From: Leptolyngbya iicbica LK
Lineage (GTDB): Bacteria; Cyanobacteriota; Cyanobacteriia; Phormidesmidales; Phormidesmidaceae
Assembly (NCBI RefSeq): GCF_004212215.1
Contig: NZ_QVFV01000001.1
Span: 754,814-818,813 of the forward strand
Direction: 5' to 3'
DNA length: 64,000 nucleotides
The notes under the pieces are model-generated. The model saw only the letters and a list, made by a program, of their open reading frames with translations, was not told where the DNA came from and made no database searches. Position numbers and translations under genes: made by a program. The stretch's first letter is position 1. Each line of letters starts with the position of its first letter. Of this stretch, positions 12,681-20,746 are shown piece after piece.

Positions 12681-12799
12681 GGGCGAGGTGATGAAACGGG
12701 CAGAAAACCAGTCCATGCATTCTAAGCGATGTCCACCATTCACGCTTGGGTGAGCTCATAGGGGCAGCAATCATTCCTCGGCCTCAAAATGCTGTGATA

Positions 12800-12884
12800 T
12801 AGCGCTGCGTAGATAGTTCTGTATGCTGCGAAACAAGGGGCTTAAGCCTCTTGCCTGTTGGTACCTTACTGCGGACTGCCATAT
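12800..12884. repeat. dispersed repeat, copy 1 (partner at 42118)
   Basis: About 85 bases that match 42118-42210: AGCGCTGCGTAGATAG, then GCTGCGAAACAAGGGGCTTAAG, then CTTGCCTGTTGGTACC and ACTGCGGACTGC. The core AAGGGGCTTAAG..CTTG is palindromic. Copy 2 carries a short insertion in the left part. It looks like a small non-autonomous or REP-like element in intergenic DNA. Confidence 0.75.
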
Positions 12885-12948
12885 CAGCATTCATCCCTCT
12901 TGAGGGTGTCATCTACAACGCTTTCTTAACAGCCAAGGAGGATGAGCG

Positions 12949-14389: not shown

Positions 14390-14581
14390 TCAGCTCTGAA
14401 TCAGGGCGAGCAGTTCGTCGGTGGAGAGCTTGCTGCTGACATCGGTGCCCGTGAGCAGGCTGTCGGCCAGGTCGCGTTTGGTTTTGTGCAGGGCGACGAT
14501 CTTATCTTCGATCGTGCCCTGGGCAACGAGGCGGTAAATGGTGACGGGGCGCTGCTGGCCGATGCGGTGAGCGCGATCGCT
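14390..14581 (-). pseudogene. truncated copy of the SNF2 helicase 3' end (last 63 codons)
   Basis: On the minus strand this reads [19 protein letters not shown] and continues without interruption to LLALIQS-stop. It corresponds base for base, with no indels, to 16517-16708, the end of the big helicase gene. By my count about 15 of 192 bases differ, and only about three residues change (Ser/Thr, Ile/Leu, Gly/Ser), so most differences are silent. Homology stops abruptly at 14581. The copy therefore probably came from a divergent functional helicase gene rather than by slow decay in place. Confidence 0.85.
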
Positions 14582-14597
14582 CTGGCATCGTCACCAT

Positions 14598-14984
14598 CTA
14601 CCAGAGTGTTTGACAGTCATATGATGCAAACGCTGGATCTTTTGAAACCAGCACCGCCGCTTCAGTTCGACTCTGGGCAATGAGCAGGCGATCAAAGGGA
14701 TCTTTGTGATGCCAGGGCAACTGATCAAGCTCAATGATGTGATCAAGCGTGATGGGAAGAATTGAGATCGCGTTTTGACTTACCTGCCGTTGAACGATCT
14801 CAAGCAAAGGGGCTTGCAACTCAAGCTTGCCTAGATGCACTTTAATCTGGATTTCCCAGACGCTGACCAGACTGAGAAAAAGCGCACTATCAGGATTTTT
14901 CAGTAAGTCCAACGTAGTTTTCTGGATCTGACTCGACTGGCTATCCCACCAGATAAATGTATGGGTATCCAGCAAAAGCTTCAT
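14598..14984 (-). CDS. VapC-like PIN-domain toxin
   Basis: A 128-residue PIN-domain protein with the expected acidic residues: LLLDTHTFIWW (Asp6), SVWEIQIK (Glu), DPFDRLLIAQ (Asp) and a fourth position near VLVSKDPAF. VapC toxins are Mg-dependent RNases that cut tRNA or rRNA and are neutralised by a cognate antitoxin. The start overlaps the antitoxin stop by four bases, the classic coupled arrangement. Its 3' end lies 17 bp from the truncated helicase copy, i.e. right at a recombination junction. Confidence 0.9.
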   Translation of the reverse strand: MKLLLDTHTFIWWDSQSSQIQKTTLDLLKNPDSALFLSLVSVWEIQIKVHLGKLELQAPLLEIVQRQVSQNAISILPITLDHIIELDQLPWHHKDPFDRLLIAQSRTEAAVLVSKDPAFASYDCQTLW

Positions 14985-15202
14985 TCTTCACCTAGCCAGA
15001 AGCAATCGGATAGAGGCTCATCGAAATCATCTCCGATCGCGATCGCCCCTGGATGTAAGTCTGGCTGACGCTGGTTGACAGTCCGACTGTCGGATTGGGC
15101 GGGTATCTTTGCCTCCGCCCATTGCAACAACTGAGTTGCGAGATGCAACTGCTCTTGCCAACTCAAACGCCGAGCCTCTTGGATTAACTCTTGCAAGGTC
15201 AC
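14981..15202 (-). CDS. antitoxin of the VapC-like pair (DUF2281-like)
   Basis: A 73-residue acidic protein: an N-terminal helix (LQELIQEARRLSWQEQLHLATQ) and the C-terminal segment DDFDEPLSDCFWLGEE. The DDFD-PL-D-FWLG tail is typical of cyanobacterial antitoxins paired with PIN toxins and likely threads into the toxin's active site. It overlaps vapC by ATGA. It is presumably autoregulated with its toxin, although I see no clear operator. Confidence 0.8.
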   Translation of the reverse strand: MTLQELIQEARRLSWQEQLHLATQLLQWAEAKIPAQSDSRTVNQRQPDLHPGAIAIGDDFDEPLSDCFWLGEE

Positions 15203-15701
15203 AGTTTACTTCCCTCCAGCAAGCTTGCTTTCAGCATATCTAATGCCAATTGGTGTGTGGCTATCGATCTCCGCAATTCCGGCAAGTGCTCGTAGCATTT
15301 CAGAATGTTGAGGTTATGCCAAGCAACAGCAACAGCAACAGCAAAAAGATAACAGATCACTACGAGGTGATGCTGTAGGCGAGATCGCCCCTAATCCTAG
15401 GTGTAGTGGTGTCCCTAAAAGTGTCTCCCCCGGGTGTGGCGATTTCAGTTCTGTTGTGCTACCTTGCATTCGGCCTTGAAGCTTGGGTCAGTTGTTTCGT
15501 AACGTACCAGGATCTCCTGAGGACACCGTAGAGGCTGCCCAGGAGGGGTTAGCTCAGCCCTGTGACCTTTATTCTGGCTAACTCCCGAGGGTTTTAAGGA
15601 ACCTCCCTTCCTTTGGATCCCTAAGTCTGGCTCCAGGGTCCCCTCATGTCTTACCAGGGGACTCTGGGATTCTACCTAGGACGGCTTACCGTTTAAGTCA
15701 G
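15203..15701. other. 500-bp intergenic stretch without recognised gene
   Basis: I see no ORF with support. The 15410-15700 part is pyrimidine-rich on the plus strand and lacks HIP1 sites, as does the next gene. Short complementary pieces occur (GTTAGCTCAG / CTGGCTAAC near 15547-15585; AGGGTCCCCT / AGGGGACTCT near 15637-15665) and could fold, but no known RNA family is recognised. Confidence 0.35.
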
Positions 15702-16370
15702 TTAAGCTAAAGGGTTGCCTTTTTTCACGGTCTCTTCCAGCAGTGTCAAGAACCCTCTACGCTCCTCTTCTTCCTCTATTAACCTCTGCCTCTTCTGCCT
15801 CTCCCTTGCCATATCTACCGGATCTCTTCTTATATCCATCTCCATCACATTAACGGTTACAGGTGGCACGGGTTTATCTTGATAAAGCTCTTTGTTTTGT
15901 ATTACTACATCCACTACCCGGTAGAACTTATAAACCTCTCTTATTTTTCCTCCGTCTGATATTGCTAGAGGAATATCCGCTATGAGGCTATCCATAGCAG
16001 TTTTCTGCATGATCGACTTACTTAGGCAAGTATTGATACTGGGGGCACTCCGGTCTCCTATCCATCTTTTTAACCCCTCTGAGAGAGTTTGCATCTCCTC
16101 TATGTTGTGATGTATTTCCGACATTAATAAAGTTCTGACGGCATCTGCTTCTTTTTCATCCTGTTGCTTTTGGTCCCTCTCGGATGCTCGTCTAGCTAAG
16201 ACAAAGGCCAAAGTAGGACCTGTAGTAGCTTTGGCAAAGTCCCAGGCATAGCTACCGAGGGTCTCAGCAGGTTCCCCTATGGTCATCCACAGAGCACTCC
16301 CCCAACTCTCAATCGCCTCCAGGAGCCCCGTTAGTCCTTCTACAAAAAATTCCTCTACCATCGGTCTCAT
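15702..16370 (-). CDS. orphan protein with N-terminal hydrophobic part and coiled coil
   Basis: A 222-residue protein with no family I recognise. The N-terminal 55 residues are mildly hydrophobic (LTGLLEAIESWGSALWMTIG, TTGPTLAFVLARRASERDQ). Next comes a charged helix with LLMSEIHHNIEEMQTL, a pattern found in small membrane-anchored proteins of unknown function. The C-terminus is a strongly charged coiled coil (MARERQKRQRLIEEEEERRG). Codon use is visibly less GC-rich than in neighbours (many TTA, ATA and CTT codons) and there is no HIP1 site, consistent with recent acquisition. It sits between the two copies of the helicase 3' end. Confidence 0.55.
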   Translation of the reverse strand: MRPMVEEFFVEGLTGLLEAIESWGSALWMTIGEPAETLGSYAWDFAKATTGPTLAFVLARRASERDQKQQDEKEADAVRTLLMSEIHHNIEEMQTLSEGLKRWIGDRSAPSINTCLSKSIMQKTAMDSLIADIPLAISDGGKIREVYKFYRVVDVVIQNKELYQDKPVPPVTVNVMEMDIRRDPVDMARERQKRQRLIEEEEERRGFLTLLEETVKKGNPLA

Positions 16371-16516
16371 CTGAGCTAAACAGACCTATTTTGGCCCAAC
16401 CTCCCAGGACCCGCCAACAGAAAAACCTTCCAGACTCCCGGGAGGGCTCTATGGTGCTGCGCTGTCTGCGAGCTACTCTAAAAATCCTGTGATTAGACTT
16501 TCAGGTATTGTCATTA

Positions 16517-19500
16517 TCAGCCCTGAATCAAGGCTAGCAGTTCGTCGGTGGAGATCTTGCTGCTGACGTCGGTACCGGAGAGTAGGCTGTCGGCGAGGTC
16601 GCGTTTGGTTTTGTGCAGGGCGACGATTTTGTCTTCGATCGTGCCCTGGGCGACGAGGCGGTAAATGGTGACGGGGCGCTGTTGACCGATGCGGTGAGCA
16701 CGATCGCTGGCCTGGTCTTCTACCGCCGGATTCCACCAGGGATCCATATGGATGACGAAATCGGCAGCGGTGAGGTTCAGCCCCGTCCCCCCAGCTTTCA
16801 GGCTAATGAGAAAGACATCGCCCTCGCCGTTCTGGAAGGCATCGACCCGCTTCTTGCGCGTCTTGGCCGGAGTGCTGCCATCTAGATATTGGTAGGCAAT
16901 CTTCTGCCTGTCCAGATATTCCCGCAGGATGGTGAGGTGATCGACGAACTGGCTGAACACCAGAGCCTTGTGGTCGTTGTCCAAAATTTCCGCCAGCACC
17001 TCGCCGAACTGGTCGAGCTTGGCGCTGGGCAGACCGAGTTCGGGGCGCACCAGTTGCGGATTACAGCAGGCCCGGCGCAGGCGCATGATTTCCGCCAGCA
17101 CTTGCAGGTGCTTTTGTCCGGCATTAGCGTCGCTGTCAGCCAGTTTTTCCACTGCTTCCCGGCGCAGGGCTTCGTAAAAGGCCATTTCGGGTTTGCTGAG
17201 CTCCACTTGCAGGGTGATCTCCGTGCGAGAGGGCAGTTCTTTGAGCACCTGGTCTTTGGTGCGTCGCAGAATGAAGGGCTGGATCAGTCGCCGCAGGGCT
17301 TCCCGCGCGGACTCATCGCGATCGCGCTCAATCGGGTTAGCAAACCGCTGGTTAAAGCTATCCAGCGACCCCAGCAGTCCCGGATTGATGAAGCGAAACA
17401 GATTCCACAGTTCCCCCAGATGGTTTTCAATCGGGGTGCCCGTGGTGAGAATCTTGAAGTCGCCTTGCAGAGCCATGGCCGCCTGCGATCGCTTCGTGTC
17501 TTGATTTTTGATGGCTTGGGCTTCGTCCAGCACAATGTTTTGCCACTGCACCTGGGCGAGCATTTTCGCTTCGTTGTCTTGCTGCAGCAGGCCGTAACTG
17601 CACACCACCAGATCGCCGGGTGCCAGGGTGTCGAGCATCTGCTGGCGATCGCCGGGACCAAACGGCTTCACCGTCAGGCTGGGGGCAAATCGCTCTGCCT
17701 CGCTGGCCCAGTTCATGCACACCGAAGTGGGGGCGATGACCAGGGTGGGGCCGGTGTCGCAGCGGGTGAGGATGAGGGCGATCGCCTGCAAGGTTTTGCC
17801 CAGGCCCATGTCGTCCGCCAGACACGCACCGACGCCCCAGTGAGCCAGCCGCGATAGCCACGTAAAGCCTTCGTGCTGATAGTCCCGCAGCTCCGCCTGG
17901 AGGGTTTTGGGGACTGACGGCTCGATGGACTGAGCGGTTTTGATGCGCTTGAGATGCTGTTTCCAGGCTTTGTCCACCTTGAGCTGGGCGACATCTTCCA
18001 CCATGTCTTCGAGGGCGAGGGCGGCGAGGCCGTGAATGCGCAGGTCTTTACCCTTGCCGTCGGAGAGTCGCTGCAACGTTTTCAGCCGCTTGCGAAATTC
18101 ATCGGTCAAGGCCAGAAATTGCCCGTCTGACAGTTCAATGAAGTTGCCGGAAGACTGGGCCATCAGCGCCATCAACTGTTGCAGATCCATCACCTGGGTG
18201 TCGCTGACCTGAATCTCGCCGCTGGCGGCAAACCAGTCTTGCTGACTGCGAATATTGAAATTGAAGTTGGACAGGCCCAACTGCTGCGACACGCGAAACT
18301 TTTCGCCCTCGGGCCACTCGATACAAACGCGATCGCCCATCTCCTGCAACTGCACCAATAGATTGAGACAGTCCTCGGGTTCGTCGATCACCCACTCCCC
18401 TTTGCTGGGCTTGTGGGTTTGCAGTACCGGACAGGTGGTTTTGAGCTCCTTAGCCCGGCGCTTCTCTTCCTTGAGATCTCGCTCGGTTTGCAGCCGCTTG
18501 CCCTCCACTTCCGCAATCACCGTTTTGCCGCCATCACCCGGCTTATAGTAAGACCCGCCTTCTGGGAAAGGATGGGCCAGCAGCGATACCCTGAGTCCTT
18601 CCCCAGCGGGCAACAGATGCACTCGGGGCGTGGGGTCGGCGGGCACTTCCTCAGCGGCAACGCCACCGCCAATGTCGGATTGAATGGTGATTAACGACGA
18701 CATGCCCGTAATCGCCTTCAGGACTTGGTCTTTGGCGAAAGCGGGGACTTCCAGACGATTATCGGGCGCGAGAAGTTGGGCAATGCGGCGATGATCGGCG
18801 TTCACGTCTAGTACCTTGAGCCGAGTCGGCGTTTCCTTGAGGGCCAGTACCGCATCGTAGGCGTTGATTTGCGGCATCAGGGAAATGCGCAGGCGATCGC
18901 CCGCAATTTCCTTCACCAGCAGTTCGGGCTCCCCTTTCACCACATCGATGCGAATGTCGGGCATGTCGGCCCAAAACACGAGGGGATGCCCCACCAACGC
19001 CAGCAAGGCACCGTCCCCAAAGGTATAGGTCGGGGAGCCATAGTAGTAATACTGCTGATGTTCGACTTCTAAATGGGCGACGATTTGGCGATCCTGATCG
19101 GTCAGATAGTCGGGCGTGTCGCGGGGTGAGGTGAACCGCTTGAGGGAAATTTGCTTGCCCCGCGTCCAACCCCCTTTGGTGCTCAGCTTTTGCTCCACCG
19201 GCGTCAGATTCCAAAACTCCATGCCGGTGAACTGGAGCCGCCACGCCAGCCGAAAGACAGGTTTCGCCGCCGGACTGCCGGGAGCCACGGTTTTCGTCAG
19301 CTGGCTCAAAGCCTTGAGCGACAATTCCCACGGCTCTTGAATTTTGACGATATCCAACAGCGGCTGACTGCCGCACTCTTCCCGCAGAGCCTCGGCCAAT
19401 TCGCCGTAAATGTCGTACTGCTCGACGCCTTCGCCCAAATGGGCCACCAGGGCCGCAAATTCCATGGCAAACCAGCCATAGTCGGCTCGCGAGGCATCGC

Positions 19501-20746
19501 GATACAGCCGCTCTAAATAATCCGGTAACCACCCACGAAAGTTGCCCGTATTCAACCAGTAAATACAGTAGGCTTCCAGCAGCGCCGGAATACCGGGAAT
19601 GTCGAGAAAATAATCTTCGTTGCGCCGCAGGCGATCGGGGACCTTGCTAATCAGACCAGCCTGAATCTGAATCACCTTTTCCAAAAGGGACATGCTGTCA
19701 TGTAGCCAGTGACCTTTGTATTGCTGCAATAGCTGGCAGCAAGCCAGCGCCTGTTTGTAGTCTTCGGGCTGACCCTGTTGCAGGAGCGCCAGCAAAAACA
19801 TTGCCGTTGCTGGGGAGTCGAACCAGGCCGCCTGCGCCCCTTTCGATTTTCCCGCTTGTTTAAGACTGGTGCGAAAATCGGCGATCGCTTCCTCCACATC
19901 GCCCGTCAGAAATGCGATCGCGCCCTTCAGCGCCAGATACTTACTGGGTTCCTCCCCCGGTGACGATTCCGATAAAATTCCACTGGCTTCGCGCAAATGC
20001 CCGCGCAACCAGAGCTGCTCAATGTAAACCAGCGTTGTAGCCGCATCGAGCTGGTTGTCTTGATACAACGCTTCCACGTTATCAAAAGCAGTCTCCGCTG
20101 CCTCCCCGGTGCGGGCGGCTTCGGCCAGGGTCAGCCGCAGCCCATATTGCCGAAATGCCAGCGAGAGGGAGTCAAACCAGTCGGCATCAAAGGGATTATT
20201 GACGATGTGTTGCAGGATTTCAGGAAACGATCGCGTCCGCCGCCAATAGGCTTGATCTGCATCGGCCAACAGTTCATCAATTTCGGCGGTGTCTTGGCGA
20301 TAAATGGCGATGCGTAATTCTCGCAACCAGGCGGTTTCATCCACAAAGGTACGCGGGCCGTGGGTGTTGTAGCGGCGTCGCGAGGCCACTTGTTGATGGA
20401 GGGCCTGGACAATGGGCTCAAAGGTGCCGAGGGCGATCGCATCCCGCACCACAATATCCACCAACTCATCGGGACATGCTGGTCCCAGACCCCGTTCTTG
20501 AATCAATGCCCCGGTTTGCAGCATTTTGGTCACCTGGGCGCTGAACTGCGGCGCGGTCAAGGGCTTGATGCGACTGCGTCCCGCCCATTCCGGCATGACC
20601 GAGTTCCAAATTTGGCCCGCATTCACCCGACTCACGGGCTCATAATAAATGGCAAACACCTGGGCGATCGTCCGCTGCACCTCAGGCAGTTGCCGATAGG
20701 TGTTTTCTAAACGTTGTTGCTGTTGAGCAGGTGAGTTAGCAGCCAT
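16517..20746 (-). CDS. large SNF2-family DEAD/DEAH helicase
   Basis: Helicase-like ATPase of 1409 residues. The first ~500 residues are helical and TPR-like (YLALKGAIAFLTGDVEEAIADF); a middle region matches the helicase-associated part of bacterial SNF2 proteins. The motor occupies the last third: motif I DDMGLGKT (about 978-985), DEAQ (about 1073), TGTPIENHLGELWNLF (about 1102), and motifs V/VI GGTGLNL and [11 protein letters not shown] (about 1340-1355). SNF2 motors translocate on duplex DNA and remodel bound proteins; bacterial ones occur in repair, transcription recycling and phage defence. The role here is unknown. The final 63 codons are duplicated at 14390-14581. Confidence 0.9.
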   Translation of the reverse strand: MAANSPAQQQQRLENTYRQLPEVQRTIAQVFAIYYEPVSRVNAGQIWNSVMPEWAGRSRIKPLTAPQFSAQVTKMLQTGALIQERGLGPACPDELVDIVVRDAIALGTFEPIVQALHQQVASRRRYNTHGPRTFVDETAWLRELRIAIYRQDTAEIDELLADADQAYWRRTRSFPEILQHIVNNPFDADWFDSLSLAFRQYGLRLTLAEAARTGEAAETAFDNVEALYQDNQLDAATTLVYIEQLWLRGHLREASGILSESSPGEEPSKYLALKGAIAFLTGDVEEAIADFRTSLKQAGKSKGAQAAWFDSPATAMFLLALLQQGQPEDYKQALACCQLLQQYKGHWLHDSMSLLEKVIQIQAGLISKVPDRLRRNEDYFLDIPGIPALLEAYCIYWLNTGNFRGWLPDYLERLYRDASRADYGWFAMEFAALVAHLGEGVEQYDIYGELAEALREECGSQPLLDIVKIQEPWELSLKALSQLTKTVAPGSPAAKPVFRLAWRLQFTGMEFWNLTPVEQKLSTKGGWTRGKQISLKRFTSPRDTPDYLTDQDRQIVAHLEVEHQQYYYYGSPTYTFGDGALLALVGHPLVFWADMPDIRIDVVKGEPELLVKEIAGDRLRISLMPQINAYDAVLALKETPTRLKVLDVNADHRRIAQLLAPDNRLEVPAFAKDQVLKAITGMSSLITIQSDIGGGVAAEEVPADPTPRVHLLPAGEGLRVSLLAHPFPEGGSYYKPGDGGKTVIAEVEGKRLQTERDLKEEKRRAKELKTTCPVLQTHKPSKGEWVIDEPEDCLNLLVQLQEMGDRVCIEWPEGEKFRVSQQLGLSNFNFNIRSQQDWFAASGEIQVSDTQVMDLQQLMALMAQSSGNFIELSDGQFLALTDEFRKRLKTLQRLSDGKGKDLRIHGLAALALEDMVEDVAQLKVDKAWKQHLKRIKTAQSIEPSVPKTLQAELRDYQHEGFTWLSRLAHWGVGACLADDMGLGKTLQAIALILTRCDTGPTLVIAPTSVCMNWASEAERFAPSLTVKPFGPGDRQQMLDTLAPGDLVVCSYGLLQQDNEAKMLAQVQWQNIVLDEAQAIKNQDTKRSQAAMALQGDFKILTTGTPIENHLGELWNLFRFINPGLLGSLDSFNQRFANPIERDRDESAREALRRLIQPFILRRTKDQVLKELPSRTEITLQVELSKPEMAFYEALRREAVEKLADSDANAGQKHLQVLAEIMRLRRACCNPQLVRPELGLPSAKLDQFGEVLAEILDNDHKALVFSQFVDHLTILREYLDRQKIAYQYLDGSTPAKTRKKRVDAFQNGEGDVFLISLKAGGTGLNLTAADFVIHMDPWWNPAVEDQASDRAHRIGQQRPVTIYRLVAQGTIEDKIVALHKTKRDLADSLLSGTDVSSKISTDELLALIQG

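What the first reader, a model, noticed from the sequence alone, without database searches (positions are those of the whole stretch)
14390..16708. Duplicated helicase 3' end brackets a toxin-antitoxin pair and an orphan gene
The last 64 codons (stop included) of the SNF2 gene (16517-16708) recur at 14390-14581 with no indels and about 15 base differences, mostly silent. Homology begins just at the stop codon and breaks off abruptly at 14581. The mostly synonymous divergence implies both copies were under selection in separate lineages, so one was brought in by recombination. The pattern resembles an element that integrates into the 3' end of a gene and supplies a new end, here carrying a VapBC-like module and an unrecognised membrane/coiled-coil protein. 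No integrase is visible, so the mechanism is open.
Basis: partly seen in the sequence, partly recalled or inferred. Interest (0 to 1): 0.75.

Follow-up and report, generated by a model that had tools for sequence, protein, structure and literature searches.

The report
Toxin-antitoxin cassettes docked on gene ends
In this cyanobacterium a small toxin-antitoxin cassette sits behind a helicase gene whose last 64 codons exist twice, once as the working end and once as a leftover end behind the cassette; related cassettes sit in the same way behind other genes in related species, which suggests that they spread by recombination at the ends of ordinary genes.

Summary
The repeat is real: 14390-14581 and 16517-16708 agree at 176 of 192 bases without gaps; 13 differences are silent, 3 change a residue (dN/dS 0.06). 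So the displaced copy was recently a working helicase end in a diverged lineage, not a decayed local duplicate. The same layout (intact gene end, toxin-antitoxin-like pair, displaced silently diverged gene end just behind the pair) recurs behind the same helicase in two genomes of a related genus with xisH-xisI as cargo, and behind two other genes around close relatives of the window's VapBC (a 186-aa gene in sister species G004, a 106-aa ORF in G215). Displaced ends begin at the cyanobacterial palindrome GCGATCGC (HIP1) in the window and G004, and at what may be its remains in the xisHI cases; not in G215. A flanking repeat close behind the stop codon was found at 9 of 41 VapC loci, against 5 of 84 and 3 of 149 control ORFs (criterion set after a first look). 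No recombinase was seen in these inserts, but helicases of this family occur on cyanobacterial plasmids, some with an integrase gene nearby. Best reading: recombination with DNA from a relative, using shared gene ends as homology handle, HIP1 often at the far junction. Mechanism and donor are not shown.

The parts
16517..20746 (-). SNF2-family helicase gene (1409 aa)
   Evidence: ORF; PF00176 E 1.1e-66 and PF00271
16517..16708 (-). intact 3' end of the helicase (copy B; perhaps the incoming end, inferred)
16700..16707 (-). HIP1 octamer of the intact copy with one silent change (ACGATCGC on the + strand)
15702..16370 (-). orphan gene, 222 aa; weak relatives in 5 of 387 other genomes searched
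   Evidence: no family match
14981..15202 (-). VapB-like antitoxin gene, 73 aa, overlapping vapC
   Evidence: aligned with G004 and G019; weak TA_VapB
14598..14984 (-). VapC-like PIN-domain toxin gene, 128 aa
   Evidence: PF01850 E 1.9e-12; matches at E 1e-25 in 139 of 388 genomes, own genome included
14582..14597 (-). 16-nt junction between the vapC stop codon and the displaced helicase end
14573..14580 (-). HIP1 octamer GCGATCGC at the start of the displaced helicase end
14390..14581 (-). displaced helicase 3' end (copy A), 63 codons plus stop; perhaps the native end (inferred)

Best explanation
The stretch 14390-16708 is the product of recombination in which DNA from a related cyanobacterium, carrying its own version of the helicase 3' end followed by an accessory segment (orphan gene plus a VapBC pair), was joined into the resident helicase gene. 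One side was most likely joined by ordinary homologous recombination in the shared helicase sequence, so the gene stayed intact with a foreign end. The other side was joined by short homology, here at a HIP1 octamer within the helicase codons for SDRAHR, which left the resident 3' end stranded behind vapC. The pair would need no recombinase of its own: it travels behind a conserved gene end and is then hard to lose. The same process, with linear DNA or with a circle that enters by a single crossover, would explain the other displaced gene ends. Shown: the repeats, their silent divergence, their recurrence, the junction positions. Inferred: direction of transfer, the two-step joining, the role of HIP1, the role of addiction, and that no recombinase took part.
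For: dN/dS between intact and displaced ends: 0.062 window, 0.086 G063, 0.022 G076; G004 8.5 synonymous and 4.5 non-synonymous changes over 19.7 and 55.3 sites; G215 4 of 5 changes silent. Same helicase with xisH-xisI (PF08814, PF08869) in G063 and G076, and an older decayed xisI/helicase junction in G076. G076's displaced end is followed by ParDE in register with the DNA behind the helicase of G062 (78.8%). Homologous VapBC behind a 186-aa gene in G004: 113-nt repeat, 81%, starting at GCGATCGC. VapBC (VapC 80% identical) behind a 106-aa ORF in G215: 126-nt repeat, 96%. Repeat starting within 100 nt behind the stop codon: 9 of 41 VapC loci, 5 of 84 ORFs in the same loci (Fisher p 0.013), 3 of 149 ORFs elsewhere (p 6e-5), those 3 being the xisI of G063 and G076 and the vapC of G004. 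HIP1 lies at the helicase junction site in 23 of 29 helicases and is there the 3'-most one of the gene. The 15 informative differences between the window's ends fall in 4 runs relative to G004 (shuffle p 0.017), as exchange inside the repeat would leave.
Against: No donor with helicase, orphan and VapBC in a row was found, and no empty site for this locus. The two window ends are about equally far from G004 (0.917 and 0.932). A one-breakpoint model of the mosaic is not significant (p 0.18). The G215 junction is not at HIP1, the G062 fragment starts elsewhere, G063's displaced end starts about six codons later than the window's (a later deletion is my assumption), and HIP1 is frequent (118 in 64 kb). 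The two xisHI cases may be one event. 32 of 41 VapC loci have no such repeat, among them G002 and G019. The criterion of 100 nt was set after one search had been seen. Of the nine positives only three are gene ends; the others look like dispersed repeats, or in L353 a gene start. The same-locus controls also have repeats (5 of 84). G062 carries a short helicase-tail fragment at another contig end, so its ParDE may be earlier cargo, which weakens the polarity argument. Integrase genes lie near plasmid-borne helicases in 2 of 8 records opened.
Confidence: 0.56

Rival explanations
1. Site-specific integration: a small non-autonomous element whose attachment site is the HIP1-containing sequence in the gene end, moved in trans by a recombinase encoded elsewhere (for example on a plasmid), brings a replacement gene end, as islands at tRNA genes do.
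For: Helicase junctions within a few codons of each other in the window, at two junctions of G076 and in G238, and at HIP1 in a second gene in G004. [quoted passage not shown] xisH and xisI are needed for fdxN-element excision (PMC4874684, passages read). The helicase is plasmid-borne in at least ten listed cyanobacterial plasmid records (77-84% over the end); of 8 opened, 3 are typed as conjugative and 2 have an annotated phage integrase gene within about 1.2 kb behind the helicase.
Against: No recombinase in the inserts that I read; none of the 8 plasmid regions holds a second helicase end, a VapC or XisH/XisI match, or HIP1 at the junction site. Repeat lengths differ (113, 126, 192 nt); G215 has no HIP1 at the junction. 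No virus or phage match of 62% or more.
Confidence: 0.26
2. Local events only: a tandem duplication of the helicase end in this lineage, then insertion of VapBC between the copies, with gene conversion or chance keeping the displaced copy protein-like.
For: The displaced end keeps an open frame; in G063 the first half of the repeat is nearly identical, as conversion between copies would give.
Against: Sixteen neutral changes would alter about 11 residues, not 3; conversion would make the copies alike, yet dS is 0.35 to 0.66 in three cases; the same layout at three different genes with a toxin-antitoxin-like pair close against the displaced end would be a coincidence.
Confidence: 0.08
3. Repeat-mediated excision and integration of cassette circles: cassettes bounded by direct repeats loop out by homologous recombination and re-enter wherever a copy of the repeat exists; gene ends are one kind of repeat, dispersed intergenic repeats another.
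For: Repeats between neighbouring small gene pairs in L356, L358, L362; a published Microcystis case of a ParDE-like pair fenced by identical 152-bp direct repeats (PMC7935541, passages read); the run pattern within the window repeat (p 0.017).
Against: Does not explain how a unique gene end first became joined to a cassette; the direct test for one reciprocal breakpoint was not significant (p 0.18).
Confidence: 0.1

Closest known systems
Genomic islands and prophages that integrate into the 3' end of tRNA or protein genes and restore the gene (recalled, from no call)
   Same: Gene stays intact with an incoming end; the old end is left at the far side of the insert
   Different: No integrase seen in the insert; cargo of two or three small genes; different target genes for one cassette family; duplicated part 113-192 nt and diverged at silent sites
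Toxin-antitoxin pair fenced by direct repeats behind the orthocaspase gene of Microcystis aeruginosa PCC 7806 (PMC7935541, passages read)
   Same: Cyanobacterial type II pair bounded by direct repeats, behind a gene
   Different: There the repeats are identical and intergenic, starting 14 bp after the stop codon; here they are diverged coding ends of the neighbouring gene
HIP1-associated recombination in cyanobacteria (as cited in PMC4390886, passages read)
   Same: Junction at GCGATCGC
   Different: According to those passages, seen in Synechococcus PCC 7002 and between cloned sequences; here in chromosomal gene ends beside toxin-antitoxin cargo, and not in every case
fdxN-type interruption elements with xisF, xisH, xisI (PMC4874684, passages read)
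   Same: xisH-xisI present as cargo in G063 and G076
   Different: No xisF-type recombinase seen; the gene is not interrupted because a full end is present
Homology-facilitated illegitimate recombination during natural transformation (recalled; the one search that held the phrase listed 15 of 6,096 papers, none with it)
   Same: One side joined by homology, the other by a few bases
   Different: Here inferred from genomes, not demonstrated

Membership tests
Integrase-encoded genomic island at a gene 3' end | gene end present in full at the insert's near side, second end at the far side | tested here: met
Integrase-encoded genomic island at a gene 3' end | site-specific recombinase in the insert | tested here: not met
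   vapC, vapB and the orphan of the window, xisH and xisI of G063, vapC and vapB of G004 have no recombinase match; smaller ORFs of the inserts were read in the ORF lists only
Integrase-encoded genomic island at a gene 3' end | one conserved core attachment sequence | tested here: inconclusive
   HIP1 in the window and G004, possible remains in the xisHI cases, none in G215
VapBC type II toxin-antitoxin pair | PIN-domain toxin gene overlapping a small upstream gene | tested here: met
   pair aligned in G004 and G019
VapBC type II toxin-antitoxin pair | toxicity and neutralisation | not testable with these tools
   needs expression
HIP1-associated rearrangement | junction at GCGATCGC | tested here: met
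   window and G004; not G215
HIP1-associated rearrangement | HIP1 needed for the joining | not testable with these tools
   needs a transformation assay
fdxN-type interruption element | XisF-type recombinase and interrupted gene | tested here: not met
   helicase open over 1409 codons in the window and in G063; no recombinase seen in the inserts

The most novel reading that the evidence does not exclude
Cyanobacteria have a recombinase-free route of cassette mobility in which toxin-antitoxin pairs use the 3' ends of ordinary conserved genes as homology handles and HIP1 octamers as the far joining point. Gene ends then act as docking sites that accrete successive cassettes, each arrival leaving a displaced, silently diverged copy of the host gene's end as a scar.
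Probability: 0.33. Interest if true: 0.8.

Novelty: new variant of a known kind. Interest (0 to 1): 0.6.

Why it matters
How small chromosomal toxin-antitoxin pairs spread without a visible mobility gene is an open question, and so is the function of HIP1, the over-represented octamer of cyanobacteria. The displaced gene ends give a readable scar: their silent divergence says that the DNA came from another lineage, and the junction says where it was joined. If the pattern holds, a simple genome scan (toxin-antitoxin pair, then an orphan copy of the upstream gene's end) would count such events, and a natural-transformation assay would test HIP1 directly.

Tried and rejected
Search for a carrier of the helicase end. 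Viral contigs: 80 loci kept, best 61% identity over 51 residues (read from the table only). Phages: 15 records, all under 60%. Plasmids: 245 records, 40 listed, annotated at the match as helicase or SNF2 genes, one as a hypothetical protein, or not annotated. Ten of the 40 are cyanobacterial, at 77-84%; I opened eight (H1-H3, H6-H10). Six hold a full-size helicase, H1 and H7 a shorter one; none has a second helicase end or a VapC, XisH or XisI match within 5 kb. So plasmids can carry this helicase, but no cassette with a displaced end was found on one. After this late check I lowered the main reading from 0.60 to 0.56 and raised the site-specific rival from 0.22 to 0.26.

Search of 388 class genomes for further displaced helicase ends: 133 have the end at E 1e-10. 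Not counted as displaced: G351, G138 (C167) and G295 (cut by contig ends), G223 (masked upstream), G275 and G362 (only a remnant of the gene), G013, G261 and G138 (further long frames), G119 and G150 (weak second match in another long gene), and helicases with a broken frame but in one place (for example G027, G265). Counted: window, G063, G076, and G238 (decayed, elsewhere in its genome). A shorter query in 63 genomes of the family added a fragment in G062 (first seen).

Deciding native versus incoming from sequence affinity failed: nearest relatives change along the helicase, and the helicase end is in general a little more conserved at third positions (0.749 against 0.676-0.725 in the seven preceding stretches, Nodosilinea-clade pairs). 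Flanking synteny failed too. The idea that helicase motif VI is the target as such was dropped when G004 and G215 turned up. A search of G019's genome for a repeat of the DNA behind its vapC was negative.

In one search two side outputs were wrong and are not used: the G215 strand was not turned, and the G000 comparison was out of register. G215 was redone; the G000 comparison printed nothing there and is left out. In one search one reference (L194) had wrong coordinates and is ignored. PMC5101192 was looked at for passages and not used.
Full report
THE OBSERVATION. Thirteen are synonymous and three change a residue; NG86 dN/dS is 0.062, and none of 20,000 neutral simulations had three or fewer amino-acid changes. 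Copy A lies in an open frame of 66 codons. In the sense of the helicase the order is helicase, orphan gene (222 aa), vapB, vapC, 16 nt, copy A. The vapC product has a PIN domain. The orphan matches no Pfam, PADLOC or NCBIfam model and has weak relatives in 5 of 387 other genomes.

RECURRENCE BEHIND THE SAME GENE. Two genomes of another genus of the family (g12) show the same layout: helicase, xisH, xisI, displaced helicase end (G063: 94.5% over 164 nt; G076: 88.8% over 187 nt). Their dN/dS values are 0.086 and 0.022. xisH and xisI were identified by Pfam in G063 and are about 90% and 88% identical in G076. G076 carries in addition an older, decayed junction of an xisI end with the start of the helicase end, farther out. 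In a draw of 388 genomes of the class, 133 have the helicase end at E 1e-10; I count four genomes with a displaced one: the window, G063, G076 and G238, the last decayed and at another place in its genome. A fifth, shorter fragment lies at a contig end in G062. Genomes set aside are named under Tried and rejected.

POLARITY. In G076 the DNA behind the displaced end (ParDE) matches, in register, the DNA behind the helicase of G062 (78.8%). This suggests that the displaced end is the native one and that the intact end arrived with xisHI. The caveat is that G062 has its own fragment of a helicase end elsewhere, so its ParDE may be an earlier arrival. In nine g12 genomes a glutamate-synthase-like gene (my reading of the sequence) follows within about 2.6 kb of the start of the helicase end, and the space between holds different cargo or none; in other g12 genomes other genes follow or the contig ends. 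For the window itself the polarity is not shown: A and B are about equally far from the sister species' single end (0.917 and 0.932), and the flanking synteny is not shared.

RECURRENCE BEHIND OTHER GENES. The sister species G004 has a homologous VapBC (VapC 77% identical) on another contig. It sits behind a gene for a 186-aa, probably membrane-bound protein (no Pfam match), whose last 25 codons and following bases are repeated behind vapC (113 nt, 81%). The displaced copy starts exactly at GCGATCGC. Over the codons there are 8.5 synonymous and 4.5 non-synonymous differences on 19.7 and 55.3 sites. The window's own genome has the same gene and neighbours, with a different pair (UPF0175 and DUF3368) in that gap and no displaced end found. 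The VapC closest to the window's (80%, G215, another family) lies behind a 106-aa ORF of which 42 codons, up to the last five, are repeated 87 nt behind vapC (126 nt, 96%, 4 of 5 changes silent).

HOW COMMON. I screened 43 VapC loci: the window, L088, L087 and 40 fetched from among the best matches, which found matches in 139 of 388 genomes. Twelve of the 43 showed some flanking repeat. I then set a criterion (second copy starting within 100 nt behind the stop codon, at least 35 nt, E 1e-8), so it is post hoc. Two loci (L356, L367), both with repeats, were dropped for short flanks. Result: 9 of 41 VapC loci, 5 of 84 other ORFs of the same loci (Fisher p 0.013), 3 of 149 ORFs of other loci (p 6e-5). 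Those last three are the xisI of G063 and G076 and the vapC of G004. Of the nine, three are gene ends (window, G004, G215). L353 repeats the start of a gene, and L354, L355, L358, L362 and L368 look like dispersed repeats. So the repeat-bounded cassette is a minority state; the gene-end form was seen in the window and in its two closest VapC relatives, not in G002 (64%) or G019.

THE JUNCTION. HIP1 (GCGATCGC) is present at the junction site in 23 of 29 helicases compared and is there the 3'-most one of the gene. The window's displaced end begins one base before it and G004's exactly at it. The older xisI junction of G076 begins at GATCGC; the newer one has two or three changed bases there, and in G063 the first codons are missing, which I read as later changes. 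G238 begins within a few bases of the same place; G215 and G062 do not. HIP1 occurs 118 times in the 64-kb window, so a single coincidence would mean little. A review states that HIP1 has been linked to site-specific and illegitimate recombination and that little is known of its significance (PMC4390886, passages read).

MECHANISM. The recombining DNA must have held a helicase end joined to the cassette. The simplest path is homologous recombination in the helicase on one side and short-homology joining on the other, as in transformation with linear DNA. A circle entering by a single crossover in the helicase end is an alternative; the run structure of the differences (p 0.017) fits exchange inside the repeat, but the one-breakpoint test is not significant (p 0.18). 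A trans-acting site-specific recombinase cannot be excluded. No recombinase was seen in the inserts read. Helicases of this family do occur on cyanobacterial plasmids: ten of the 40 plasmid records listed. Of eight opened, three are typed as conjugative and two have an annotated phage integrase gene close behind the helicase; none has a second helicase end, a VapC or XisH/XisI match, or HIP1 at the junction site. Such plasmids offer a vehicle for either reading.

NOVELTY. A direct-repeat-fenced toxin-antitoxin pair is known from one Microcystis study (PMC7935541, passages read), with identical intergenic repeats. I found no report of pairs bounded by silently diverged gene ends in the paper searches made (listings only, apart from the passages named). 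They cover an open-access library and a few word combinations, so this is weak evidence of absence. I rate it a new variant of a known kind.

Noticed in passing
G000:C4 (L383:2306-3066): In the window's own genome a UPF0175/DUF3368 pair sits directly behind the same 186-aa gene that carries VapBC with a displaced gene end in the sister species: two different toxin-antitoxin pairs at one gene end.
   Followed up: partly
L184-L198, L077, L078, L081, L083: In Nodosilinea-clade genomes the space behind the SNF2 helicase holds different cargo (by eye: RelE-like, UPF0175-like, sulfotransferase-like, transporter, restriction genes; by Pfam: xisHI, ParDE): an insertion hotspot.
   Followed up: partly
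L390 (AP018183.1), L392 (AP018241.1): Plasmid-borne helicases of this family have an annotated phage integrase gene within about 1.2 kb downstream; on NZ_AP026077.1 (L391) the helicase is followed by parA and parB.
   Followed up: partly
window 16517-20746: The helicase scores strongly against PADLOC models of defence helicases (DpdE, best E 6.8e-190; ZorD) but stays below the NCBIfam cut-offs of the families it matches; a defence role is neither shown nor excluded.
   Followed up: no
L356, L358, L362: Arrays of small toxin-antitoxin-like gene pairs (by eye) separated by direct repeats of about 60-170 nt, some containing HIP1.
   Followed up: no
L031:9900-9955 (G004): A stretch that by eye resembles the 3' part of a tRNA lies about 180 nt behind the helicase stop codon in the sister species; ARAGORN reports no tRNA there.
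   Followed up: partly
L032 (G005): The helicase of G005 lacks internal codons: matches end near codon 798 and resume near 1225.
   Followed up: no
window 12792-12888: A stretch of about 95 nt with 84-85% copies at three other places of the same genome, an unnamed dispersed repeat.
   Followed up: no
window 15702-16370; L299, L300, L301, L302: A family of about 200-aa proteins with, by eye, an N-terminal membrane segment and a shared motif around GPTLAF...EA.AVRTLL..EI.HN; three tested members have no Pfam or NCBIfam match.
   Followed up: partly
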